Source: Bacteroidaceae bacterium
Lineage (GTDB): Bacteria; Bacteroidota; Bacteroidia; Bacteroidales; Bacteroidaceae
Assembly (NCBI GenBank): GCA_017465905.1
Contig: JAFTVE010000012.1
Coordinates: 29,912-93,911, forward strand
DNA: 64,000 bases
Direction: 5' to 3'
The notes under the pieces were generated by a model. The model was not told where the DNA came from and made no database searches. It was given only the letters and a program-made list of their open reading frames with translations. Every line of letters begins with the position of its first letter. The stretch's first letter is position 1. Below are positions 41,939 through 52,851 of this stretch, in pieces. The position numbers were made by a program, and so were the translations under genes.

Positions 41939-42541
41939 ATGAAATGCTATAGGTATATAATACTATGTATATTGTTGGCAATAGCATCGTTGCAGAGCGA
42001 GGTGTCGGCCCAAAGCTACAAGACTAAGCAGGTGGCACTGCCCGTGGAGATATATAAAGGTGATACCATCCCCGTTGTGCATCTTCGCGAGGTGTACATC
42101 TATAACCGGCCAAAGTTCAAGAATCGCCGCCAGGAACGCTACTATTGGCGTACGGTACGCGATGTCAAGAAAACGTTGCCCATAGCTCGCGAGGTGCGCG
42201 GTATCATCATCGAGACCTATGAGTATCTGCTTACTTTGCCCGATGAGAAGGCCCGTGAGGCTCATCTGGCTGCCGTGGAGAAAGGCATGATGGCGCAGTA
42301 TACTCCGCAGATGAAGAAGCTTACCTTCAGCCAGGGTAAGATGCTCATCAAGCTCATCGACCGCGAATGTGAGCAGACGGGCTATGAGCTCATTCAAGTG
42401 TTTATGGGAAACTTCAAGGCCGGATTCTACCAAGCCTTTGCCGCCCTCTTCGGTGCCAGCCTCAAGAAGGGCTACTACCCCGATGGCGAGGATGCCGAGA
42501 TAGAAGAGATAATCTTCTGGGTGGAGCAGGGAGTACTCTGA
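41939..42541 (+). CDS. DUF4294 exported protein
   Basis: 200 residues with a signal peptide (cleavage near SEVSAQS, about residue 25). The DUF4294 core includes YKGDTIPVVHLREVYIY near 38-54 and RQERYYWRTVRDVKKTLPIA near 62-81, with FSQGKMLIKLIDRECEQTGYELI later. Family members are secreted or periplasmic Bacteroidota proteins of unknown function. It lies 48 bp after gldN on the same strand, so a link to type IX secretion is possible but only by position. Confidence 0.9.
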   Translation: MKCYRYIILCILLAIASLQSEVSAQSYKTKQVALPVEIYKGDTIPVVHLREVYIYNRPKFKNRRQERYYWRTVRDVKKTLPIAREVRGIIIETYEYLLTLPDEKAREAHLAAVEKGMMAQYTPQMKKLTFSQGKMLIKLIDRECEQTGYELIQVFMGNFKAGFYQAFAALFGASLKKGYYPDGEDAEIEEIIFWVEQGVL

Positions 42542-42579
42542 GCGGCTGTTCGTCTCTTTGATGGGCGCAGGGTAAAAAA

Positions 42580-42599
42580 CTGCCAAGGCCCCTTGGCAG
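42580..42599. terminator. Terminator-like hairpin after the DUF4294 gene
   Basis: CTGCCAAGG (42580-42588) pairs perfectly with CCTTGGCAG (42591-42599). The T-run is on the minus-strand side, so it would terminate better in that direction. It shares the TGCCA(A)GG word with the long inverted repeat further on. Confidence 0.55.
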
Positions 42600-42713
42600 G
42601 AAAGGGTTGTTTGCTGTAGATGGCACTTTATCTCGAATTTTACATTGTTGATATACAATATGTTGTATTTCGCCCCTACGAAATTGTCACTATTTTGTTA
42701 CTAAAAAAGGCAG

Positions 42714-42855
42714 TGTATAGAATTTTTATTTTTGGCCTGGCAGAGTGCAGAGCTACATGGATTTTTGTACACCGGCTTGGCGCGAAGCCTGTACGATTTT
42801 ACACTCCGAACAACTTCAATGCACTCTGCCAGGCCAAAAATAAAAATCCTATATA
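42714..42855. repeat. Long inverted repeat with nested hairpin (cruciform / MITE-like)
   Basis: Positions 42722-42749 and 42820-42847 are a perfect 28-bp inverted repeat, containing GGCCTGGCAGAGTGCA. After one mismatch the pairing continues outward over TGTATAG / CTATATA, giving about 36 bp. In the 70-bp loop a second hairpin, GTACA-CC-GGCTT / AAGCC-TGTAC, spans 42767-42794. CCTATATATAGG at 42848-42859 is a further palindrome. No coding region lies between 42542 and 43362. Confidence 0.85.
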
Positions 42856-43027
42856 TAGGGTTTTCGGGTTTCCGACGCTTCGGATTTCGCCCCAGAGAAT
42901 GCTGGGATGTGTTGAATATCAGAGAATGACGGTTGCTCTTCCCAATTTCCAGTTCTCAATTTTCAATTCTCTTGCCAAGGGGGGCTGGCAGAATTCCATG
43001 GATAGTACTAAGCACTATTTTGCTCGT

Positions 43028-43114
43028 ACTAAGTACAAAATATTTTTTACTTAGTAGAAAATTCATTTACATGCATGCACCGCTCGCGGTACATGCATGT
43101 ACCGAACTTGGTAC
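43028..43114. repeat. Cluster of three hairpins upstream of the ATPase-nuclease gene
   Basis: Hairpin 1: ACTAAGTA (43028-43035) with TACTTAGT (43048-43055). Hairpin 2: ACATGCATGCACCGC (43069-43083) with GCGGTACATGCATGT (43086-43100), 14 of 15 paired around a 2-nt loop. Hairpin 3: GTACC (43099-43103) with GGTAC (43110-43114), sharing two bases with hairpin 2. Confidence 0.8.
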
Positions 43115-43212
43115 AAAAGGATATTTCAATCGGAAGAAATCATAGTGCGTATTCTCTGCTTTATTATGCCTTATAATAACAGGATTTTAATCGGTAATCG
43201 TGCTTATTAATA

Positions 43213-43287
43213 TACATTTCCGAATAGAATGCGCGTAAACAATGTGTATATCTTTCGGAAATCTATATTTTTTAGGTACATTTCCGA
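43213..43287 (+). promoter_or_regulatory. Repeated ATTTCCGA sites, candidate operator upstream of the ATPase gene
   Basis: TACATTTCCGA occurs at 43213-43223 and 43277-43287, and the inverted form TCGGAAAT at 43255-43262. The last copy ends 9 bp before the -33 box of the promoter at 43297, an appropriate place for a regulator. Confidence 0.5.
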
Positions 43288-43296
43288 TGGTTTTGC

Positions 43297-43327
43297 TTTG
43301 ATTCGATGTAGGAATACTTTATCTTTG
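43297..43327 (+). promoter_or_regulatory. Promoter of the ATPase-nuclease gene
   Basis: TTTG (43297-43300), a 19-nt spacer, then TATCTTTG (43320-43327), 35 nt before the Met at 43363. It matches the Bacteroides primary-sigma consensus. Confidence 0.75.
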
Positions 43328-43362
43328 CGTCATCAAAAGTGAAGAGAATAAAAATAGATAGT

Positions 43363-44778
43363 ATGATAGTCGGAAGAAAGGAAGAGAGCGCACGTTTGAA
43401 AGCATTGCTGCAGTCCACCCAGCCGGAGTTTGTGGCTGTATATGGTCGTCGTCGTGTGGGTAAGACGTATCTTATTCGTGAGACATTCAACTACCGTTTT
43501 GCGTTTCAGCATACAGGTATTTACAATGCTTCGCTGCATGAACAGTTGATTGAGTTCCAATCTTCGCTCCGTATGTATGGCCTGAAGCGGCAGTCCCGTC
43601 TTAGGACATGGCGCGAGGCTTTCGAACAATTGCAAGAACTTGTAGCAGCCCTTCCCGATGAAAAGAAAGTGATTTTCATCGACGAGTTGCCTTGGATGGA
43701 TACGGCCAAGAGTGGCTTTGTAAGTGCTTTGGAGCATTTCTGGAATGCTTGGGCTTCGGCACGAAAGGATATAGTGCTGATAGTTTGTGGTAGTGCTACC
43801 TCATGGATTATGGACAAGATTATCCTCAACTATGGTGGGTTACACAATCGGCTGACGGGGCGCATATTGCTTCAGCCCTTTACGCTTGGCGAATGTGAAC
43901 TCTTTGCCCAAGCTCAGCAGTTAACCATGAGTCGTAAGGATATTGTTGAGGCCTACATGGTGATGGGTGGTATACCTTATTACTGGAGTTTTTTGCAACG
44001 CGGTTTGTCATTGGCACAAAATATAGACCGACTGTTTTTCCAACCTACAGGTGAATTATATCTGGAGTTTCAAGCCTTGTATGCTTCTTTGTTCAAAAAT
44101 TCGTCTCTGCATATAGCCATCGTGGAGGCATTGGGCAAAAGCAGAATGGGGCTATTGCGCCAAGATATATTGGATAGTGCAAAAATAATGGATAGTGGCG
44201 CGTTCAGTAAGGCTCTGAATGAATTGGAATACTGTGGCTTCATCCGCAAGTACAATGCCATTGATAAGAAAAGAAAAGAGGCTGTTTACCAGTTGATTGA
44301 TAGCTATACTTTGTTCTACTACCAGTATATCTGCACCAATAAATACAATGACCGTAATTTCTGGTCTTCTACTTTGCTGAGCAATAGACACCATAGCTGG
44401 GCTGGGGTTGCTTTCGAACGTGTATGTTTATTGCATATCCGACAGATAAAACGCGCATTGGGTATTGAAGGAGTACTGACCAATGTGTATTCATGGCAGA
44501 CTAAACCCACCGATGAGTATCCTGGTGCACAGATAGATCTGTTGATAGATAGACAAGATGGTATTATCAACCTATGCGAGGCGAAATTTTCCTCTATGCC
44601 GTATTGTATGACAAAAGAAGATAGTGATGCATTGGTTCGTAAACAAGCAGTCTTTATGCATCACACACGACTTAGCAAAGCTGTACATCCTATTTTGTTA
44701 ACTACTTATCCTCCAATGGAGAACCAAAACTTATATTCCGTGCAAGCAGTGATTACAATGGACGAATTGTTTGGGTAG
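43363..44778 (+). CDS. AAA-family ATPase (ATPase_2) with C-terminal DUF234 nuclease-like domain
   Basis: 471 residues from the ATG at 43363; an in-frame GTG at 43339 is only 12 nt past the promoter -7 box. Walker A is GRRRVGKT (residues 28-35) and Walker B VIFIDELPWMD (103-113). A winged-helix segment is likely in the middle (LRQDILDSAKIMDSGAFSKA). The C-terminus carries a PD-(D/E)XK-type pattern (GAQIDLLIDR, then INLCEAKFSS), as in the DUF234 ATPases shared by archaea and bacteria. The family function is unclear; a defence or mobile-element role is often suspected. It is isolated, with highly structured upstream DNA, consistent with an accessory gene. Confidence 0.88.
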   Translation: MIVGRKEESARLKALLQSTQPEFVAVYGRRRVGKTYLIRETFNYRFAFQHTGIYNASLHEQLIEFQSSLRMYGLKRQSRLRTWREAFEQLQELVAALPDEKKVIFIDELPWMDTAKSGFVSALEHFWNAWASARKDIVLIVCGSATSWIMDKIILNYGGLHNRLTGRILLQPFTLGECELFAQAQQLTMSRKDIVEAYMVMGGIPYYWSFLQRGLSLAQNIDRLFFQPTGELYLEFQALYASLFKNSSLHIAIVEALGKSRMGLLRQDILDSAKIMDSGAFSKALNELEYCGFIRKYNAIDKKRKEAVYQLIDSYTLFYYQYICTNKYNDRNFWSSTLLSNRHHSWAGVAFERVCLLHIRQIKRALGIEGVLTNVYSWQTKPTDEYPGAQIDLLIDRQDGIINLCEAKFSSMPYCMTKEDSDALVRKQAVFMHHTRLSKAVHPILLTTYPPMENQNLYSVQAVITMDELFG

Positions 44779-44961
44779 AAAAAGATTCACGTTCCTGCGG
44801 ATGTGACTTCGCAGACCTCGGCTGTGCTCGTCGCAAGAATTCAAACAAGTTTGAATCTTACTCGCTGGCACGAGGTTTCCCCATCCGCTGACTGCGAGTA
44901 TGAGCATCTCCAGATGCGACAAGCGAATTCTTTCTGTCGGGATTATTCCTACAATAGAAAA

Positions 44962-44987
44962 ACGGGGGATGAATGAACATCCCCCGT
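44962..44987 (-). terminator. Terminator of the receptor transcript
   Basis: ACGGGGGATG (44962-44971) pairs with CATCCCCCGT (44978-44987); on the minus strand it is followed by TTTTCT. It sits just past the stop of the methyltransferase remnant. The interval 44779-44961 holds no credible gene. Confidence 0.8.
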
Positions 44988-45000
44988 GACGGCATAATAC

Positions 45001-45198
45001 CTATCTCCTCCGTAGAATACAGTGGTATGAGGTAGTGAAATAATCCCTTATGTAAGGTACGCCTGCTATACCTTTCCATAATATACGAGGCTTAATCCCG
45101 AATTTTGCTTCATAATGCGGATTTATGAAATATAGCCGCTGCTTAATTACTTTATAGCCCGTCTTGTGGCATAGTTTCTCAAATCCCTGTATTGTCAT
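45001..45198 (-). pseudogene. C-terminal remnant of a SAM-dependent methyltransferase
   Basis: 65 residues. GFEKLCHKTGYKVIKQRLYF, INPHYEAKFGIKPR, then VPYIRDYFTTSYHCILRR matches the C-terminal end I associate with a group of Bacteroidota class I methyltransferases. The SAM-binding fold before it is absent. Its ATG overlaps the stop of the receptor gene as ATGA, which could be a real coupled start or an accident of a deletion joining the two genes. The remnant view is more likely because the domain is incomplete. Confidence 0.6.
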
Positions 45199-47294
45199 TG
45201 AGGCTTTTGAGGCTTGTTGAATTTTCCCAAGCCGGTATTGTCGCTCGATTCATTTATCAGCTTGCTGTCGTGCCTTCTTGCTCGCCCCACAGAGAAGGTA
45301 TAGGTCGCAGTTATGCGTGTCAAATGATGAAGTGGTCGCCAATCCTTGTTTTTATAATATCTGAAATCGGGCAGTTCCGCAATGGTGTAATCATTATGTC
45401 CAGAATAGTTATATTGGGCTCCGAAGGACCAGTCCTTCCATTTGTACTGGAACACAGCGGCATACTGCAGGCTTCCGCGAGTAAGAAGGTCTCCGTCATA
45501 TTCCTTGGTGGGTGAGTTGATGGCAAGGATTAGTGACATGTTGTTATATGATGTAGTAACACGACCTCCGATACGCATGTAGTTGAAGCGCACGTGCTGG
45601 GATGATGTTTGAAAATTAGAAAAATAATATTCCCAATATGGGGATATTGACAGCCATTTCAGTGGTGACCATGTAGCGTATAGAAATACTTGACCGCTGA
45701 ATACATTACCAATGTGATTGGGTTGGAGAAATACTTTATCATCGTTTTTTACAATAGTAGTTGCAATCTGATTGTAAGCATAATATGGGACAGCGACTAA
45801 ATTGATTATATTCTTCCCATCAGGTGCAAAGTAGCACAAAGCCAACTTTGCTGTGTTTACCCAATAAGGCTTCAGCTTAGGATTTCCTATCGAGATTGTC
45901 CACGGATCAAGGTTTGTAACAGCCTCAGTTAAGTCTCCGAGAGAGGCGGCACGTTGGCTAGCCATGAGAGTCAATTGCACGGAAGTTCCCTTCAGTTTGT
46001 CCTTCCCCCACCAATCGGCATATAGCCTGATATAGGGAAGCGCAGATGTGTAGGCTGTTGAAAGGCTCGTTTGTCGTATGATGCTTATGCCCATATAGGG
46101 GGTTATCCATCCAGGCCCCCAGTCCCATGAGCCCCCAGCTGTAAGCATGCCTGCATGTGAGCTGGGCGTATACTCTGAAGCTGCCGACTGTTGGTACAGT
46201 TGCTTGTATTCGTAGCGCGAGCCAAGGCCTAACGAACCGCCCCAAAGAGGAGAATTGAACATGGCATTTGTGATAAACGAATAGGAGTCGTTTTTCACTT
46301 CTGTTTGATAATCGTTACTATTCCCTATATTTTCGGTGCCCTCTGGGAACTCTGTTGTATAGGTTGAGTTTGATTGGCTTTCGCCCAAGGAGTTTACCAC
46401 ATTAATGGCAAACATGCGACCCAGTTTCATCTGGTATCTGTAATACAAGTCAAGGGTAGCTATCAGGGACTGACTCTTGAGTTGATTGAAGTTGTGCCCT
46501 TGAGTTGTCTCATCGCCACGTACGATAGTACTGTTTCTGGAATCCTCTTCCTTGCCAGGATCCATAATTGAATACAACTTGGCATTGAAGAGGTGCTTGC
46601 CCTGGAAACGCTGATATGATGTATAAAGATTGTGATGCTCACCGCCATAATAACCACTTCCGCAGTATTGGGAACGATGTGTGGGGCTATAGGTAAAATC
46701 GGTCTGACTACTGATGTCCTTAATGTTACGATAATCTATGAAGTAGCCCAGCTTGACTTGATTGAGTGAGTCGGCATAGGTCAAATCAATCTGGTTAGTG
46801 CCGAATCCTGTATTTACAGCATTGGATGTGTTGATATATCCACTATACTGTCTGTCGTGACGTTTCTTCACGATGACATTTACGACCGGCCCCATAGTGA
46901 AGACCATATATTGTGGAGGGGCTACAGCATAATATTCAATGTGCTTTATGTCATCTCCTTTGTATCCTCGCAAGTCGATAGCCGTAGACGGCACTCCATT
47001 GATGAGGATAAACACCTCTTGCCTGTCCCATGAAAGAAGTTTGGTGTCATTGAGAGAGGTCTGGAATAGAATCAGAGAAGATGTGGCATCCAATGCATTA
47101 GTTCCAAACTCCTTGTTCTCTTTTGATAGATAGAGCACATCATGATTGCCCTTGTGGACGATTCGGTCAGCCTCGATAACGATATCTTCCAATACATGCA
47201 TTCGGGCTGTGTCAGTAGCCTCTTGACCGTAACAAAATACAGGTAGAATTAGAAAATATATAATAGTTTCTACTAAATTATTTGTTTTTTTCAT
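45195..47294 (-). CDS. TonB-dependent-receptor-like outer membrane protein
   Basis: 699 residues. The signal peptide is MKKTNNLVETIIYFLILPVF with cleavage near CYGQE. A plug-like domain lies at about 30-150 (VLEDIVIEADRIVHKGNHDV, EVFILINGVPSTAIDL, DDIKHIEYYAVAPPQY, and VVNVIVKKR). A beta-barrel of aromatic-rich strands follows to about residue 670. After the last strand (ATYTFSVGRA) there is a charged tail of about 27 residues. No carboxypeptidase-like repeat or TonB box is obvious. Its start lies within the last codons of the broken DUF3244-like gene, so the two were one operon. Codon use is more AT-rich than in the housekeeping regions. Confidence 0.88.
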   Translation of the reverse strand: MKKTNNLVETIIYFLILPVFCYGQEATDTARMHVLEDIVIEADRIVHKGNHDVLYLSKENKEFGTNALDATSSLILFQTSLNDTKLLSWDRQEVFILINGVPSTAIDLRGYKGDDIKHIEYYAVAPPQYMVFTMGPVVNVIVKKRHDRQYSGYINTSNAVNTGFGTNQIDLTYADSLNQVKLGYFIDYRNIKDISSQTDFTYSPTHRSQYCGSGYYGGEHHNLYTSYQRFQGKHLFNAKLYSIMDPGKEEDSRNSTIVRGDETTQGHNFNQLKSQSLIATLDLYYRYQMKLGRMFAINVVNSLGESQSNSTYTTEFPEGTENIGNSNDYQTEVKNDSYSFITNAMFNSPLWGGSLGLGSRYEYKQLYQQSAASEYTPSSHAGMLTAGGSWDWGPGWITPYMGISIIRQTSLSTAYTSALPYIRLYADWWGKDKLKGTSVQLTLMASQRAASLGDLTEAVTNLDPWTISIGNPKLKPYWVNTAKLALCYFAPDGKNIINLVAVPYYAYNQIATTIVKNDDKVFLQPNHIGNVFSGQVFLYATWSPLKWLSISPYWEYYFSNFQTSSQHVRFNYMRIGGRVTTSYNNMSLILAINSPTKEYDGDLLTRGSLQYAAVFQYKWKDWSFGAQYNYSGHNDYTIAELPDFRYYKNKDWRPLHHLTRITATYTFSVGRARRHDSKLINESSDNTGLGKFNKPQKPQ

Positions 47295-47580
47295 TGTCGA
47301 ATAGATGCTTTAAGTAGTCTACTACCTCACCATCCGCGTTGACAAGCGAAATAGTAGCATTTCCTATATTGTGTAAGAGTACTTCAACTTCTGCGATATT
47401 AGAGTAAAAGATGGCCTCAATGATAGGAATATCGATGCTTCATTCATATTCATTACTCGAGGTGTTGGTAATATCCATTTCGATTCTTGTTGGACCAGAG
47501 GAATTCTTGTCTTCAGCGGTTGCTGTGCTGCTAATATTGGCAGTCATAAGTAGCATCATTGTTGCAATAATTTTTTTCAT
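47278..47580 (-). pseudogene. DUF3244-like small secreted protein with one in-frame TGA
   Basis: From the ATG at 47580 the minus strand reads MKKIIATMMLLMTANISSTA (signal peptide) and continues to SSNEYE, then TGA at codon 47, then SIDIPIIEAIFYSNIAEVEV, LLHNIGNATISLVNADGEVV and a tail to TAA at 47278. The frame is open for all 100 codons except that TGA. The second half has the beta pattern of DUF3244 (GNATISLVNADGEVV). A single nonsense change, a sequencing error or recoding would explain it. It precedes the receptor gene directly and has a TAACTTTG box upstream. Confidence 0.8.
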
Positions 47581-47611
47581 ATCTTATGATATTTATAATG
47601 GTTTAATAATG

Positions 47612-47619
47612 CAAAGTTA
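47612..47619 (-). promoter_or_regulatory. Likely -7 promoter box for the DUF3244-like / receptor operon
   Basis: Minus-strand TAACTTTG matches TAnnTTTG, 32 nt upstream of the ATG at 47580. Confidence 0.6.
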
Positions 47620-47801
47620 TCCGTATAAAGTTTCATCGCCAAGTTAATAGTTTAATATTTTTACAGAAATAAACAGTCTTTTATTTCTGATATTCAACTA
47701 TATATAAATATGTAAAATAAATAGTTTTAGAACAGTTCCATGAAAAGTTTAATATAGATATTGAAGAGGAGGTGGGACTATTGTGTAATGGCACAAAAAT
47801 C

Positions 47802-47842
47802 GGGGAAGACATAGGCTTACGATGAAAGCTAATGTCTTCCCC
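47802..47842 (-). terminator. Terminator of the TPR-HTH regulator gene
   Basis: GGGGAAGACAT (47802-47812) pairs perfectly with ATGTCTTCCCC (47832-47842); the minus strand continues into GATTTTTG. It lies 35 bp past the regulator stop. The rest of 47620-47801 is AT-rich with no gene. Confidence 0.85.
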
Positions 47843-47876
47843 AACACAATAAATCAGTTGGAGCTTGATGATATCC

Positions 47877-49532
47877 TTATTCAGAAGATAGCTCTTTCAT
47901 CAACTGACGGAGATAAATGCCTAAATTGGTATCATGTTCGCTGATGCCAAGTTTTTCGCGGATGATGCTACTCTGGTTGTAGTGGCTTCTCAGTTTGATG
48001 TAGGTTCCAATTTCTTTTCCTTTCAGCCCTAAGGCATAGAGACAGCAATAATTGATTTCCCACTCATTCAACCCTCTTTCGTTTAAGTAGTGGATAAATC
48101 TAGGATGACTACCAGTGAATGATAGACGATTGGAGTTTATGAATGATTCTCTGTCTGTCACAAGTTTCTTGATTTCCTCATTGATAGTATAATCGTGCTC
48201 TTCTTTGGACTTAATATACGTTGCGAAGAAGCTGTTCAGTAATGCTAAGCGCTCCGATAGAATTTGTTGGCTCGTTTCGCTTAGTTTATGGCGTTCGGAA
48301 AGAAGTCGAGAGAGACTATCACGCTCTTCTTCCATTTGTAAGTATTGTAAGCGATAATATTCTTTTTCAGCTTCCAAATGCTCCTTTTGTTTGGTTCTTT
48401 CAATCAGGTGCATACGTATTCCTAGACATAGCGACAGTAGGACGAGGACGCTGATGAGTGACAATAGGATGATTATTCTAGCTTTTTCTTGTTCCTTGAT
48501 TGACCGCAATTCGGATTTATGGTATTCCTCCATGAACAGAGTCGTCTGGCTATATGCTGCTAAATCAATGGAGTCTGTTAGACTTGAATAGTGCAGATAG
48601 GATTCCAAGGCCTTATCGGGTTGATTGTTCTCTTTGTGAATTTTGGAGATGAGGGCGTAATATCGGATATCTTGCTTGATATTAGAGCCTATTTGATAAT
48701 TCTGAATGTAGGTATATGCAGTTGCGAAATCGTTGAGAAGTGTATATGCGTTGGCAATGGAAATCCAATCCAATTTATCTTCTGGTATCATTGTAAGATA
48801 TTGGTTTAGCAGGGGAGTGATAGCTTCTATCTTGTTGTTTGTCACGACATAATTCAGTAGCGTTTTATAAAACTCGTTTTTCCTGATTAAACTTATCGAA
48901 TCAAAGATTTGTTCACATAGTTCAATATACTTCGCTGCGTTTTCCTCATCTTGGACGATATTATAACCATTTATAATATGAATAAGACAGTTGGCATAAC
49001 TGTTCCGTAAACCTACTTCTTTGAAAAGCTCTGCGGCTTTTTTGTTTTCCTCAATGTAGTTGTCCCATTTATATAGCGTATTATATATATTGCCTTGTGC
49101 AAAGTGTACTCGGGCTTTGGTCAATATGTCTTTGGAATCTTTTCCCTCATTCAGCGCCTTGCTGAAGCGAATTATCGCTGAGGCGTTGTCGCCTAAATTT
49201 GTGTAGATGCGTCCCTGATAGTAATAGGTGCGCAACTTGTCCGTAGCCGTGCCGTGTCTCTGGTAATAGTCGATGGCAGGTTGCAGTACCTCGAAATCAG
49301 TGCGGTCGATATAGTTCTTGTCCATCGCCATTGACAGCAGCAGGGCATACTTCGCTTTCTCCTCCATTCCAAACAACTCATCCTTGTCCATTCTTTGTAG
49401 GACGGTCAACGCACTATCTGGCCTCTCCTCAATATATGACTCAACCTGCGCCAGCGTCTCCCAATGCACCGAGTGATGGCTGCACGCCACCATGCAGAGC
49501 ACCATGGCAAGAATCGCGATATAGTATCTCAT
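47877..49532 (-). CDS. Membrane-spanning TPR regulator with C-terminal LuxR-like HTH
   Basis: 551 residues from the Met at 49532 (MRYYIAILAMVLCMVACS), a lipoprotein-like signal with Cys at about 17; the frame is open to 49571. Residues ~20-340 are TPR-like helices (YYQGRIYTNLGDNASAIIRF). A membrane helix lies at about 353-372 (IILLSLISVLVLLSLCLG), then a coiled coil (about 375-425). The end (about 475-530, GLNEWEINYCCLYALGLKGKEIG, cut here to GLNEWEINYCCLYALG) resembles a LuxR-type HTH. The architecture is a periplasmic TPR sensor joined to a cytoplasmic DNA-binding end. The neighbours are a small secreted protein and an outer membrane receptor. The target and signal are unknown. Confidence 0.85.
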   Translation of the reverse strand: MRYYIAILAMVLCMVACSHHSVHWETLAQVESYIEERPDSALTVLQRMDKDELFGMEEKAKYALLLSMAMDKNYIDRTDFEVLQPAIDYYQRHGTATDKLRTYYYQGRIYTNLGDNASAIIRFSKALNEGKDSKDILTKARVHFAQGNIYNTLYKWDNYIEENKKAAELFKEVGLRNSYANCLIHIINGYNIVQDEENAAKYIELCEQIFDSISLIRKNEFYKTLLNYVVTNNKIEAITPLLNQYLTMIPEDKLDWISIANAYTLLNDFATAYTYIQNYQIGSNIKQDIRYYALISKIHKENNQPDKALESYLHYSSLTDSIDLAAYSQTTLFMEEYHKSELRSIKEQEKARIIILLSLISVLVLLSLCLGIRMHLIERTKQKEHLEAEKEYYRLQYLQMEEERDSLSRLLSERHKLSETSQQILSERLALLNSFFATYIKSKEEHDYTINEEIKKLVTDRESFINSNRLSFTGSHPRFIHYLNERGLNEWEINYCCLYALGLKGKEIGTYIKLRSHYNQSSIIREKLGISEHDTNLGIYLRQLMKELSSE

Positions 49533-49608
49533 AGGAATGTAGCTCTTAATCATTGCTGCGAAGATATACATAAATCACGATACGGCAAAATAAGAAGATA
49601 AAAAAGCA

Positions 49609-49663
49609 AGAGACCATTTTCACATCGTCCCCAGGCGGTGGGAATCGTAAAAATGGTCTCTTA
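49609..49663 (-). terminator. Terminator of the CoA-transferase gene
   Basis: AAGAGACCATTTT (49609-49621) pairs perfectly with AAAATGGTCTCTT (49651-49663) over 13 bp; the minus strand continues into GCTTTTTTATC. Confidence 0.8.
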
Positions 49664-49730
49664 AGACTTAGAATCTGTTCAGCTAAACTCGAAATAGTTT
49701 TTAAAACAGATTTTTATCACAGCTGTGCTA

Positions 49731-51212
49731 TCACCACTCTGTCAGGCGCATATCCCCTTTGGTCTGCAGGGCGTCGTGCATGGCAAGGGCAGCACGTACG
49801 TTGTGGCAGGTATGGCCCTTTGAGGAGAGGTGCAGGTAGTCCCAGAGGAGTTGGCGATAGTCGGGGTGTGCACAGTTCTCGATAATGGCTTTGGCACGCT
49901 CCATGGGGCTCTTGCCTCGAAGGTCGGCAATACCCTGCTCGGTAATCATGATGTTCACGCTGTGCTCATTGTGGTCGACGTGCGATACCATAGGAACGAT
50001 GGCACTGATCTTGCCCTCCTTGGCTACTGAGGGACATGAGAAGATGGAGATGTAGGCGTTGCGGGTAAAGTCGCCGGAGCCACCGATACCATTCATCATC
50101 TTGGTGCCACATACATGGGTAGAGTTTACGTTACCGTAGATGTCGGCCTCGAGCGCAGTGTTCATAGAAATCAAGCCTAAGCGACGTGCTACCTCGGGGT
50201 TGTTTGAAATCTCTGAGGGGCGAAGCACGAGCTTCTCCTTGAAGAAGTCGATGTCATCGTAGATGCTCTGGAGACAGTCGTTGCTGACGCTGAGCGAGCA
50301 GGTGCTACCAAACTTGCAGCGGCCCGAGCGAATGAGGTCGATAACTGAATCCTGAATCACCTCGGTATACATCTCAAAGGCAGGTACGGTAGCGTCGGCA
50401 CCAAGAGCACCGAGCACAGCATTGGCCACGTTGCCCACACCGCTCTGCAGGGGCAGGAAGGTGGAGGGGATGATGCCGCGCTTCATGTCACCAATGAGGA
50501 ACTGGGCTACATTGTGCCCGATTTGCATGGTGATAGGGTCGGCATCGGTGAAGGGGCGTGCCTCGTCGGGGCGGTTTACCTCCACGATACCTACAATCTT
50601 GGCAGGGTCGACCTGTACATAGGGTGTACCGATACGATCAGAAGCCTTGTAGATGGGAATCTCGCGGCGCAAGGGAGGATCGGCAGGCTCATAAATGTCG
50701 TGCAATCCCTTGGGGGCAGTGCCGTAGGCGCTGTTGAGCTCGATGATGACCTTGTCGGCCAGGCGGGCTACTGTGGGGGCGATACCTACACCGGCAGTCA
50801 GGTAAACCTTGCCGTCGGGGGTCACGTCACAAGCCTCAAGGATGGCAACGTCGACCTTGCCCATGAATCCGTAGCGCACCTCCTGTGCCATCTGTGAGAG
50901 ATGGATGTCGTTGTAGGCGATCTCGCCGGCATTGACAGCCTTGCGGAAGTCGCCGTTAGTGGTATAGGGGGCACGATAGCGCAGTGCCTTGGCGCGAGTG
51001 AGCGCACCGTCGCATGAGTCACCCGTTGAGGCGCCTGTGAAGAGTCCTATCTGGAAGGGACGGCCTGCGGCATGCTCTGCTTCGGCAATGCGTGCAATCT
51101 CTGATGTTACGGTTTTGGGTGTTCCGGCGGGAGTAAATCCGCCCAACCCTACATTGTAGCCATGCTTGACGTGGCTTGCAGCTTCAGCTGCGCTGATGAT
51201 TTTGAAACTCAT
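49731..51212 (-). CDS. Acetyl-CoA hydrolase/transferase family protein (succinate-type CoA-transferase)
   Basis: 493 residues from the Met at 51212 (MSFKIISAAEAASHV); the frame is open to 51260. It moves CoA between acetate, succinate and related acids, for example forming acetate from acetyl-CoA while activating succinate. Family features are VGLGGFTPAGTPK near the N-terminus, GVGNVANAVLGALG in the middle and HVCGTKMMNGIGGSGDFTRNA with the CoA-binding GGSGDF. Length is normal for succinyl-CoA:acetate CoA-transferases, fitting a succinate- or propionate-forming anaerobe. It is preceded on the same strand by a short membrane-anchored protein 44 bp upstream. Confidence 0.93.
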   Translation of the reverse strand: MSFKIISAAEAASHVKHGYNVGLGGFTPAGTPKTVTSEIARIAEAEHAAGRPFQIGLFTGASTGDSCDGALTRAKALRYRAPYTTNGDFRKAVNAGEIAYNDIHLSQMAQEVRYGFMGKVDVAILEACDVTPDGKVYLTAGVGIAPTVARLADKVIIELNSAYGTAPKGLHDIYEPADPPLRREIPIYKASDRIGTPYVQVDPAKIVGIVEVNRPDEARPFTDADPITMQIGHNVAQFLIGDMKRGIIPSTFLPLQSGVGNVANAVLGALGADATVPAFEMYTEVIQDSVIDLIRSGRCKFGSTCSLSVSNDCLQSIYDDIDFFKEKLVLRPSEISNNPEVARRLGLISMNTALEADIYGNVNSTHVCGTKMMNGIGGSGDFTRNAYISIFSCPSVAKEGKISAIVPMVSHVDHNEHSVNIMITEQGIADLRGKSPMERAKAIIENCAHPDYRQLLWDYLHLSSKGHTCHNVRAALAMHDALQTKGDMRLTEW

Positions 51213-51256
51213 AGTTGTATGTTGTATTTTCAGTGTGTTTATGCATTCTGTTCTTC

Positions 51257-51643
51257 TCAATCGTATTTGCGATTAAAGATTTCTGCGTATATGAAGGCTC
51301 GGCGTGCCTCCTGGGGAGTACGCAGATGGATGTCATCGTCTTGTGCCTCCTTTTGTGGCGCTTCCTCTTTGGTGGGTGTCACCTTTTTCTCGACCTTCTT
51401 TTCCACCACGATGGGAATCTCTTCTACGGGCACTACAGGCTGAGGCGTAAGGCTCTCCTCTATGTCATAGTCTGTGTCATAGTCCATGTCATCTTCCACC
51501 TCGTCAACCTCCATGCCTGGTATTGACGGCATAGGAGCCTGCCCAGGTTTGTTGGCTTCAAACTCGCTAAAGGATTTCTTGAAGTAGGAGCTTGCAACCT
51601 TTAAGACTGCATAGACGATGACTAATACTACAAGTGATGACAT
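51257..51643 (-). CDS. Small membrane-anchored acidic protein, function unknown
   Basis: 128 residues. One N-terminal membrane helix (about 3-20, SLVVLVIVYAVLKVASSYF), then an acidic, proline-rich middle (VDEVEDDMDYDTDYDIEE) and a Lys/Glu/Val stretch. The last ~24 residues (DIHLRTPQEARRAFIYAEIF) look like a conserved short motif, so the protein is probably real and is perhaps an adaptor tethered to the inner membrane. It is transcribed with the CoA-transferase gene. I do not recognise the family. Confidence 0.7.
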   Translation of the reverse strand: MSSLVVLVIVYAVLKVASSYFKKSFSEFEANKPGQAPMPSIPGMEVDEVEDDMDYDTDYDIEESLTPQPVVPVEEIPIVVEKKVEKKVTPTKEEAPQKEAQDDDIHLRTPQEARRAFIYAEIFNRKYD

Positions 51644-51750
51644 ATGCGCACTATATTTTATTGATAACTCACGGCAAAGTTACGGAATAATACCTTATTT
51701 GTACCACATTTGTTCATTTTTTTTGTTGATGGCCATTCTATGCCAGCAAA

Positions 51751-52851
51751 CTACACCAACAGGCGCTTGATCCACTTGCCGACAGGCTGCTCGAACCATC
51801 GGTACGAAGCGCCGCTGATGATGATTGTCATCGCGAGAAGTAACAGTATGGCGATGTAGGGTGATAGGGTAAACTGGAGGTGGCGCTCTGCCTCTGTGAA
51901 GAGGCGGAACAGCAGATGGTGGATGAGGTAGAATCCGAAACTAATCTCTCCGCCCCATACCAAAGGACGTGATGAGAGGATGCGGGAGAGGATACCTCCC
52001 TGTTGGGCAAACGTGAAGATGACCAAGGCTACGGGAAGCCAATAGTAGCATGAGTAGCGGTATACCTGGGGCACGTGTATCGAGAACAGGTAGAACCCGA
52101 TAAACAAGGCTACGGCGGCTGCCTCCTTCAATGTCGCCATGCGGAACGATGAGGCTGCAGGCGCTGTGTCTGTTGCCTTGCGCCATTGTGCAGAGTCTGA
52201 TGACTTGAAGATGACATACACCACCATGCCCAGCAGGAAGTCGGGGAATCGGGCCAGTGGGTTGACGTACCAGATGTTCTTCATCATCTCGGCGGGCGTG
52301 AACCACATGCCTCCGATGACAAGAACCGTGCATAGGGCAAAGAGGCTATAAAGTTGGCGCGGACGGTGCAGCAGGGGCACTATCAGCGGGAAGAGGATGT
52401 AGAACAACTGCTCGCAGCAAAGACTCCACGAGGGGCTGTTGAAGGAGAAGTAGTACTCTCCGTCGGGGATGTAGCCCTGGCATAACAGCAGGTTCGGGAC
52501 GAAGTGCCTTGCCCAGTCGCCCCATCCGTTTGCCAAGGTATAGGTGCCAATGGCGGCAGCGATGAAGAGCATCAGCCAATGGAGCGGATAGATGCGGGCA
52601 ATGCGTGCTACCCAGAACTTGCGTCGGGCCATTGCCAAAGCTGGCTTGCCAACTTCTGCCGCGCTGAAACGGCTATCGTAGCTGTATGAGATGATGAATC
52701 CGCTCAGGACAAAGAAGAAGCTTACTCCCACGTACCCCTCTGTGAGTAGCGGTATGTCAAATGTGCTGCTCACGATGTTGCAGTGCGAGGCAAACACCAT
52801 GAGGGCGAACACCAATCGTAGGGAAGTGAGCGGACGTATCATGTATCTCAA
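51751..52851 (-). CDS. Acyltransferase family 3 membrane protein
   Basis: 366 residues with about ten membrane helices. Family features are RPLTSLRLVFALMVFASHCN at the N-terminus (with the conserved His) and GYVGVSFFFVLSGFIISYSY. These enzymes O-acetylate or succinylate surface glycans, LPS or peptidoglycan. Met codons at 52851 and 52842 are both possible starts. It is divergent from the glycosyltransferase pair, so a shared role in surface glycan decoration is plausible but only by location. A TACCTTTG box lies at 52867-52874 (minus). Confidence 0.92.
   Translation of the reverse strand: MRYMIRPLTSLRLVFALMVFASHCNIVSSTFDIPLLTEGYVGVSFFFVLSGFIISYSYDSRFSAAEVGKPALAMARRKFWVARIARIYPLHWLMLFIAAAIGTYTLANGWGDWARHFVPNLLLCQGYIPDGEYYFSFNSPSWSLCCEQLFYILFPLIVPLLHRPRQLYSLFALCTVLVIGGMWFTPAEMMKNIWYVNPLARFPDFLLGMVVYVIFKSSDSAQWRKATDTAPAASSFRMATLKEAAAVALFIGFYLFSIHVPQVYRYSCYYWLPVALVIFTFAQQGGILSRILSSRPLVWGGEISFGFYLIHHLLFRLFTEAERHLQFTLSPYIAILLLLAMTIIISGASYRWFEQPVGKWIKRLLV

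What the first reader, a model, noticed from the sequence alone, without database searches (positions are those of the whole stretch)
45195..49532. Possible trans-envelope sensing module: membrane TPR-HTH regulator, secreted small protein and outer membrane receptor
The regulator has a periplasmic TPR region, one membrane helix, a coiled coil and a LuxR-like end, so it could carry a signal directly from periplasm to DNA without a kinase. Next to it are a small exported protein and a plug-containing outer membrane receptor in one operon. The lipoprotein-like N-terminus together with an internal membrane helix would tether it at two points. I know of no described mechanism for such a trio; the function is inferred from architecture and location.
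Basis: inference. Interest (0 to 1): 0.7.

Follow-up and report, generated by a model that had tools for sequence, protein, structure and literature searches.

The report
Membrane switch controlling neighbouring envelope genes
A gut bacterium carries a membrane-spanning protein that probably senses something outside the inner membrane and directly switches on the envelope genes beside it; relatives of this switch often sit beside genes for secreted modified peptides, though in this copy one of the controlled genes is broken.

Summary
The three genes are real, but the reading changes. The regulator (47877-49532, -) is open throughout: lipobox, TPR region, one membrane helix and a C-terminal NarL/LuxR-type HTH, supported at family-profile level. 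The small exported gene (47281-47580) is a DUF3244 homologue broken by an in-frame TGA and lacking its C-terminal third. The barrel (45195-47294) is TonB-receptor-like, 58% identical to one beside an ECF sigma/FecR pair and 29% to one in a RiPP cassette. A hairpin terminator and a Bacteroidota promoter suggest that the regulator is transcribed apart from the other two.

The larger result is a family rule. Small DUF3244 genes lie next to such a regulator in 60 of 64 evaluable loci (23 of 24, then 37 of 40 held out). Upstream of many target promoters are tandem direct repeats at fixed spacing. The window's version occurs, at up to 1 mismatch, twice in its 2.84-Mb genome, each time just behind a regulator of this subfamily.

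Best reading: a dedicated membrane one-component activator with one local target operon. Cargo varies and sometimes is a RiPP cassette. The signal is unknown.

The parts
47877..49532 (-). Membrane-anchored TPR-TM-HTH regulator, 551 aa (ORF also open from 49571)
   Evidence: full-length but far below-cutoff homology to NF053779 BT3442 family
49482..49532 (-). Lipoprotein-type signal peptide, MVAC with Cys17
   Evidence: Cys17 invariant in 10 aligned sequences, window's included; lipobox-like motif in 39 of 66 family regulators by a loose pattern
48543..49235 (-). TPR region (approximate limits)
   Evidence: Pfam TPR matches below cutoff; profile matches to solved TPR proteins including Rap phosphatases
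48417..48476 (-). Single membrane helix, residues 353-372
   Evidence: Kyte-Doolittle 19-residue mean 2.97; internal helix above threshold in 63 of 66 family regulators
47943..48071 (-). C-terminal NarL/LuxR-type HTH (approximate limits)
   Evidence: profile of 46 C-termini against PDB: 7ve4 (DNA-binding response regulator) E 1.1e-4, VraR 2rnj 1.9e-4, EvgA 2.9e-4, DesR 3.0e-4, NarL 1.4e-3; single-sequence Pfam scan of the window member: none
47799..47845 (-). Terminator-like hairpin running into GATTTTT, after the regulator
   Evidence: -27.4 kcal/mol, z -6.1, 0 of 200 shuffles as good; not in the list of the pattern scan, which allows loops of 3-8 only
47612..47655 (-). Predicted operator and promoter: TTAAACTAT-N11-TGAAACTTT-N7-TAACTTTG (-7 box)
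   Evidence: with up to 1 mismatch 2 sites in the genome, both behind a subfamily regulator; reversed-pattern control 0
47281..47580 (-). Broken DUF3244-like exported-protein gene: signal peptide present, in-frame TGA at 47440-47442, C-terminal third missing
   Evidence: 38-41% identity to L019, L018, L009 over 91-99 columns, E down to 6e-16
45195..47294 (-). TonB-receptor-like outer membrane barrel with plug-like N-terminal region, 699 aa, no CarboxypepD_reg domain found
   Evidence: 58% over 675 aa to L159 barrel, 29% over 672 aa to L160 barrel; PF14905 in both; profile with 3 relatives hits the colicin I receptor, plug end, E 4e-4

Best explanation
The regulator is a dedicated transmembrane one-component transcription activator. 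Its lipid-anchored periplasmic TPR region senses a periplasmic state (inferred), one helix crosses the inner membrane, and a C-terminal NarL/LuxR-type HTH binds two direct repeats 20 bp apart that end just upstream of the -7 box of the neighbouring promoter, about where RNA polymerase would read -33 (sites shown, binding inferred). The target operon begins with a small exported Ig-like DUF3244 protein and continues with envelope or secretion cargo; in some relatives this is a RiPP cassette (GG-leader peptide, radical SAM maturase, outer membrane barrel, peptidase-containing exporter). The near-obligate pairing makes the DUF3244 protein most likely the periplasmic sensing partner or feedback subunit of its regulator (inferred). 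In the window the promoter, regulator and barrel remain, but the DUF3244 gene is damaged and no maturase or leader-type peptide was found, so this copy is a trimmed, perhaps recently decayed, version.
For: Regulator-DUF3244 adjacency: 23 of 24 evaluable loci (26 fetched) and 37 of 40 held-out loci, against roughly 2-4% expected from regulator density (an estimate). HTH profile. Operator: repeats at the preset spacing, at least 7 of 8 bases, in 13 of 36 held-out loci against 9 of 133 control upstream regions, Fisher p 3e-5; first set 11 of 29 against 9 of 88 at p<=0.05. Window-type operator with up to 1 mismatch: only behind subfamily regulators in the loci scanned; 2 sites in the own genome, both behind such regulators; 4 sites in 20 other genomes, 3 of them behind such regulators. 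Terminator and -7 box. Radical SAM cargo: L009, L018, L051, 4 of 26 and 7 of 40 loci of the two wider sets.
Against: No binding, expression or topology data. The window's HTH alone matches no Pfam model, and unrelated chains (14-3-3, borealin, a decarboxylase at 0.009) also appear lower in the profile's PDB list. The window's two repeats differ at 2 of 9 positions and are not significant on their own (p 0.30). Twenty-three of 36 held-out loci lack repeats of at least 7 of 8 at the preset geometry; by rank test the hold-out geometry score is only p 0.011. Nine subfamily loci (L020, L021, L023, L024, L025, L028, L046, L049, L050) lack the window-type operator; L049 has a similar HTH end all the same. 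Covariation of HTH with operator is weak (partial rank correlation 0.12, Mantel p 0.002). Many loci are related, so counts are not independent. Activation rather than repression is inferred from position only.
Confidence: 0.66

Rival explanations
1. Decayed locus: the window copy is non-functional debris. The DUF3244 gene was broken when a barrel gene from another kind of locus was joined behind the promoter, and the regulator has lost its partner.
For: In-frame TGA and lost C-terminus of the DUF3244 gene. The closest barrel found (58%) lies in an ECF sigma/FecR locus, not a DUF3244 locus. A methyltransferase-like remnant overlaps the barrel's end.
Against: Regulator and barrel are full-length and open. 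The promoter and operator are kept. The DUF3244 remnant still shows codon-position bias (48, 35, 70 differences by position against L019; 47, 38, 54 against L009), so any decay may be recent.
Confidence: 0.35
2. The repeats are bound by another factor, and the TPR protein is an envelope scaffold whose degenerate HTH no longer binds DNA.
For: HTH not detectable in the window's single sequence and in few of 46 members; weak HTH-operator covariation; L049 lacks the operator despite a similar HTH end.
Against: Profile match to NarL-type HTH. The window-type operator lies behind regulators of one subfamily in 2 of 2 own-genome sites and 3 of 4 sites in 20 other genomes.
Confidence: 0.15
3. Substrate-uptake control: the regulator senses a ligand brought in by the barrel, like a nutrient receptor with its own sensor, without a peptide signal.
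For: A TonB-receptor-like barrel is the downstream gene in the window. Its 58% relative sits with an ECF sigma/FecR pair, a known receptor-coupled control scheme (recalled).
Against: No SusD-like or hydrolase match to a carbohydrate enzyme among the 7 proteins of the neighbourhood that were scanned. Barrels occur in a minority of regulator-DUF3244 loci. A 29% relative sits between a radical SAM protein and a C39 exporter.
Confidence: 0.2

Closest known systems
BT_3442 / BT_3441 of Bacteroides thetaiotaomicron (NCBIfam NF053779; in PMC2954219, passages read, a TPR protein and a homologue of the Ig-fold protein 3d33 beside a MACPF cluster)
   Same: Full-length homology of the regulator (E 7e-23, profile positions 4-551 of 563); 3d33 matches the DUF3244 profile; the same gene pair
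   Different: Score 81 against a cutoff of 940, so not the same equivalog; other cargo; no function of the pair tested in the passages read
RRNPP peptide sensors (Rap, PlcR, ComR; partly recalled)
   Same: TPR region matches RapF, RapJ and RapH chains (E 2e-7 to 2e-4); an HTH; often an adjacent exported small product
   Different: Here TPR is N-terminal and predicted periplasmic, HTH C-terminal and of NarL type, and the protein is membrane-bound; other TPR proteins score better than Rap
Membrane-bound one-component regulators such as ToxR/CadC and SusR (recalled)
   Same: Sensor outside, single membrane helix, DNA-binding domain inside, no kinase
   Different: TPR sensor, lipobox, NarL-type HTH at the C-terminus, DUF3244 partner
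TPR genes in Bacteroidales RiPP clusters BGC2 and BGC9 (PMC10352776, passages and section 13 read) and TPR/PF14905 genes in graspetide loci (PMC8939145, passages read)
   Same: The same association of TPR proteins and outer membrane barrels with peptide-maturation loci; the first paper already mentions regulation after pheromone binding as a role of TPR domains
   Different: In what I read, neither the membrane-HTH architecture, the DUF3244 pairing nor an operator is described

Membership tests
NarL/LuxR-type HTH regulators | C-terminal HTH with the GLxxKEI...KLG pattern | tested here: met
   Profile of 46 C-termini, best 1.1e-4 to a DNA-binding response regulator, VraR 1.9e-4; single sequence alone below detection. 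Sequence-profile level only
NF053779 BT3442 family | Score at or above the curated cutoff 940 | tested here: not met
   81 bits, full-length alignment
DUF3244 (PF11589), window gene | Intact domain above gathering score | tested here: not met
   Neither half of the window gene hits; homologue L009 E 6e-4, below cutoff; homology by BLAST and phmmer
OMP_b-brl_3 (PF14905), window barrel | Match above gathering score | tested here: not met
   No hit; 58% relative L159 scores 43 bits against cutoff 27
TonB-dependent receptor | Plug, 22-strand barrel and TonB box | tested here: inconclusive
RiPP biosynthetic cassette | Precursor peptide and maturase in the locus | tested here: not met
   No KGG-type ORF in window 42000-52000 by pattern; no Radical_SAM match in the 7 neighbouring proteins scanned. 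A maturase plus leader-type peptide are present in relatives L009, L051, L087, L090, L144, L160
RRNPP quorum sensing | Cytoplasmic TPR receptor with N-terminal HTH and a short propeptide gene | tested here: not met
   Membrane helix between TPR and a C-terminal HTH
FecIR-type trans-envelope signalling | ECF sigma, FecR-type anti-sigma, receptor with N-terminal signalling domain | tested here: not met
   No sigma or FecR match in the 7 neighbouring proteins scanned; both lie beside the 58% relative in L159
Transmembrane one-component regulators | Sensor in periplasm, DNA-binding domain in cytoplasm of one protein | not testable with these tools
   Inferred from lipobox and hydrophobicity only

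The most novel reading that the evidence does not exclude
A Gram-negative, periplasmic counterpart of RRNPP signalling: each paralogous regulator uses its lipid-anchored TPR groove to read its own operon's exported product (the DUF3244 protein, or a modified peptide held by it), giving a set of private, self-sensing switches for secreted peptide and toxin-like cargo in Bacteroidales, each with its own direct-repeat operator.
Probability: 0.22. Interest if true: 0.85.

Novelty: new variant of a known kind. Interest (0 to 1): 0.6.

Why it matters
Gut Bacteroidales carry many unassigned TPR regulators (10 in this genome by BLAST) and DUF3244 proteins with solved structures; I found no paper giving a function for the pair. 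A rule that ties the two together, with a predicted binding site, makes both testable and points to how some peptide-maturation clusters in this order may be switched on, which bears on finding their products.

Tried and rejected
Trio as an obligate unit: rejected. A barrel is within about 6 kb downstream in 8 of 17 inspectable loci of the window's regulator subfamily (window, L009, L018, L022, L024, L046, L050, L051; L022 by a CarboxypepD_reg domain only; counted by eye with Pfam). Of the subfamily loci found, those that end near the regulator (L019, L026, L027, L043, L045, L047) were left out and the copies L042 and L044 counted once with L022 and L020; L025 and L028 are near copies but counted apart; L023 holds only about 2 kb downstream. 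In the two wider sets: 3 of 26 (L087, L090, L104, all used to build the model; L090 by CarboxypepD_reg only in Pfam; a 73-aa edge match in L093 not counted; three loci hold under 400 nt downstream) and at least 5 of 40 (L129, L138, L144, L148, L150; a partial match in L124 and the CarboxypepD_reg protein of L131 not counted; L138 lacks the regulator). In the own genome 3 of 10 regulators, or 4 with the window's, have one close by (about 0.6 expected; p 0.016 and 0.0016; 16 barrels merged by hand).

Small protein as an intact secreted ligand in the window: rejected because of the in-frame stop and missing end. That the 46-residue stub is itself a secreted peptide is not excluded but has no support.

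Sigma-70 promoter scan: uninformative (9 found, 13.4 expected). Exact operator pattern TGAAACTWT twice: no site in the own genome, because the window's first repeat differs; the degenerate pattern was used afterwards. DUF3244 search across the order: mostly C-terminal domains of large proteins, so not used as the hold-out; I used further genomes of the same family instead. DUF3244 inside long proteins (11 loci): 6 also have a regulator beside them, one of these unclear (L109).

N-terminal extension of the L159 barrel as an STN signalling domain: not shown (no relevant PDB relative, FecR_C at E 0.07). PHROGs: nothing useful.

The free-spacing test on the same loci does not depend on this range (9 of 36 against 5 of 133 at p<=0.05).
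Full report
WHAT IS THERE. The regulator ORF runs 47877-49571 on the minus strand; the start at 49532 (MRYYIAILAMVLCMVACS) matches the starts of several homologues. Ten aligned sequences, the window's included, keep Cys17 of the lipobox-like signal. The region around residues 86-320 matches solved TPR proteins, among them engineered TPRs, G-protein-signaling modulator 2, alpha-SNAP and Rap phosphatases. One strong hydrophobic helix lies at residues 353-372. No Pfam model matches the window's own C-terminus, but a profile of 46 family C-termini finds NarL/LuxR-type DNA-binding domains first: 7ve4 1.1e-4, VraR 1.9e-4, EvgA 2.9e-4, DesR 3.0e-4, NarL 1.4e-3; unrelated chains appear lower, from 0.009 on.

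THE SMALL GENE IS BROKEN. At 47281-47580 an exported-protein frame (MKKIIATMMLLMTANIS...) is interrupted by an in-frame TGA at 47440-47442. It is homologous to small proteins beside related regulators (L019 39%, L018 38%, L009 41%; E 6e-16 to 1e-11), but homology stops at about 47316, so the final third of the domain is absent. Uninterrupted genes exist at the equivalent place in L009, L018, L019, L022 and L048. L009 and L048 match PF11589 (DUF3244; L009 below the cutoff, L048 above), L018 does not. A 15-member family profile hits solved DUF3244 chains 3sd2, 3d33 and 4g5a. Codon-position differences of 48, 35 and 70 against L019 (47, 38, 54 against L009; 44, 31, 63 against L018) hint that the frame was under coding constraint until recently. 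This is one draft assembly (54 contigs, 79.7% complete), so an assembly error is not excluded.

THE BARREL. The 699-aa product at 45195-47294 has a signal-peptide-like start but no Pfam or NCBIfam match. Within 251 family genomes, 5 including its own have a match at E<=1e-20. The best, in a genome of the same genus, is 58% identical over 675 aa and is encoded directly after an ECF sigma factor and a FecR_C protein. The next is 29% identical over 672 aa and sits between a radical SAM protein and a C39-peptidase ABC exporter, behind a KGG-leader peptide ORF. So the window's barrel belongs to a group used both in a sigma/anti-sigma locus and in a peptide locus.

TRANSCRIPTION UNITS. After the regulator's stop, 47799-47845 folds into a strong hairpin running into GATTTTT (z -6.1). 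The small gene has a Bacteroidota-type -7 box, TAACTTTG, at -39 (consensus recalled). Regulator and target genes are therefore most likely separate units.

THE PAIR IS A FAMILY RULE. A PF11589 search of 61 family genomes gave 40 matches in 23 genomes. I fetched the 37 outside the own genome. Of the 26 with a short frame (under 200 aa), 24 could be judged; 23 have a TPR-TM-HTH regulator adjacent, two of them divergently placed and one in pieces. I then noted predictions (written in the same turn as the search, before its answer) and took the first 40 eligible loci, in listed order, from family genomes beyond those 61; two near contig ends were skipped. Two of these genomes, G072 and G244, had already given other loci. 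Thirty-seven of 40 have the regulator adjacent, five divergently. From regulator density one expects about 2-4% (an estimate; related loci are not independent). In the own genome the three DUF3244 genes over the cut-off, plus the one on C51, follow such a regulator.

CARGO. What follows DUF3244 varies. Radical SAM proteins by Pfam occur in L009, L018, L051, L087, L090 and L104; leader-type peptide ORFs were seen in L009, L018, L051, L087 and L090, not in L104. PF14905 barrels follow in L009, L018, L051, L087 and L104; the L090 barrel shows only a CarboxypepD_reg domain. By a model built from those six, a same-strand radical SAM protein lies downstream in 4 of 26 loci of the first set (L087, L090, L104, L106) and in 7 of 40 held-out loci (L120, L121, L123, L129, L138, L142, L144; L138 lacks the regulator). 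In 10 held-out loci searched by pattern, GG-type leader peptides were found in 4 (L121, L128, L142, L144). PCAT-like exporters there were recognised by eye; only that of L160 was scanned. Other loci carry secreted proteins, GLPGLI-like genes or nothing obvious. BT_3442/BT_3441 of B. thetaiotaomicron show the same pair beside a MACPF cluster (PMC2954219, passages). Whether RiPP genes are enriched against a genomic background was not tested.

THE OPERATOR. Upstream of the DUF3244 promoter many loci have direct repeats. In the first 29 loci, 11 have a best repeat at p<=0.05 against shuffles, versus 9 of 88 control upstream regions. Two layouts recur: spacing about 11 (or 21), second copy starting about 39-43 nt before the -7 box, with different core sequences in different groups; and, in the window's subfamily, spacing 20 with the second copy starting 15-17 nt before it. 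The latter reads TGAAANWWT-N11-TGAAANWWT-N7-TAnnTTTR in the window (one mismatch), L009, L018, L019, L022 (same as L042), L041 and L048, and with N12 and one mismatch in L051. No site with up to one mismatch turned up elsewhere in the window or in about 1.03 Mb of other loci; the short search loci that overlap the subfamily loci (L001, L002, L030-L040) were left out. Genome-wide the window genome has two such sites with up to one mismatch, the window's and the C51 paralogue's, each just behind its regulator, and one further site at two mismatches on C2; the reversed-pattern control gives 0. In 20 other genomes there are four, three behind subfamily regulators and one elsewhere. G101, G144, G208 and G328 have a subfamily regulator but no site. 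Members with a different HTH end (L020, L021, L023, L046, L050) lack it, but so does L049, whose end is similar. Across 59 loci, HTH and operator similarity covary only weakly (partial rank correlation 0.12, p 0.002).

HOW IT PROBABLY WORKS. Shown: architecture by sequence, pairing, promoter layout, operator distribution. Inferred: that the HTH binds the repeats; that it activates, because the second repeat lies where a -33 element would be; that the TPR region is periplasmic; that the DUF3244 protein is a sensing partner. In the window the pair is broken on the DUF3244 side, so the switch may be stuck, or may be read by another DUF3244 protein of the cell.

WHAT IS KNOWN. Searches of the paper library for BT3442, DUF3244, TPR regulators of Bacteroides/Bacteroidetes and Bacteroidales RiPPs listed no paper that I recognised as describing the regulator-DUF3244 pair or its operator; most listed papers were seen as listings only. 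One paper notes TPR genes in Bacteroidales RiPP clusters (PMC10352776, passages and section 13), another TPR genes and PF14905 barrels in graspetide loci (PMC8939145, passages). Subscription journals and bioRxiv are not covered. The module is best called a new variant of the transmembrane one-component regulator.

Noticed in passing
window 45001-45198 (-): 65-aa frame overlapping the barrel's 3' end, about 70% DNA identity over 118 bases to the end of a methyltransferase-like gene (by eye) in L016: looks like a gene remnant.
   Followed up: partly
window 43339-44778 (+): AAA ATPase of the ATPase_2 (PF01637) type next to the locus.
   Followed up: no
L159 6417-9908 (-): ECF sigma factor, FecR_C protein and a barrel 58% identical to the window's, with an N-terminal extension that may be a signalling domain.
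   Followed up: partly
L160 6161-12739 (+): KGG-leader peptide, radical SAM, barrel, C39-ABC exporter and a further short gene (membrane-fusion-like by eye), with no regulator match in the 18 kb held.
   Followed up: partly
L101 6189-10616: A regulator gene in two pieces, apparently split by an IS21-like element (istA/istB-like ORFs by eye), still beside its DUF3244 gene.
   Followed up: no
L125, L130, L133: Two regulators in tandem with a DUF3244 gene and a 156-aa gene between them, conserved in three genomes.
   Followed up: no
L023, L045, L046: Subfamily regulators share GGAAAACTTTT before a -7-like box downstream of the regulator, possibly their own operator version (by eye).
   Followed up: no
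L022 9923-11636 / L042: Subfamily regulator split into two frames (505 and 92 aa) by an apparent frameshift although operator, DUF3244 and barrel-like genes are present.
   Followed up: no
L106 3472-6819 (+): 1115-aa frame with a strong radical SAM model match downstream of a DUF3244 gene; possibly a fused or very long maturase.
   Followed up: no
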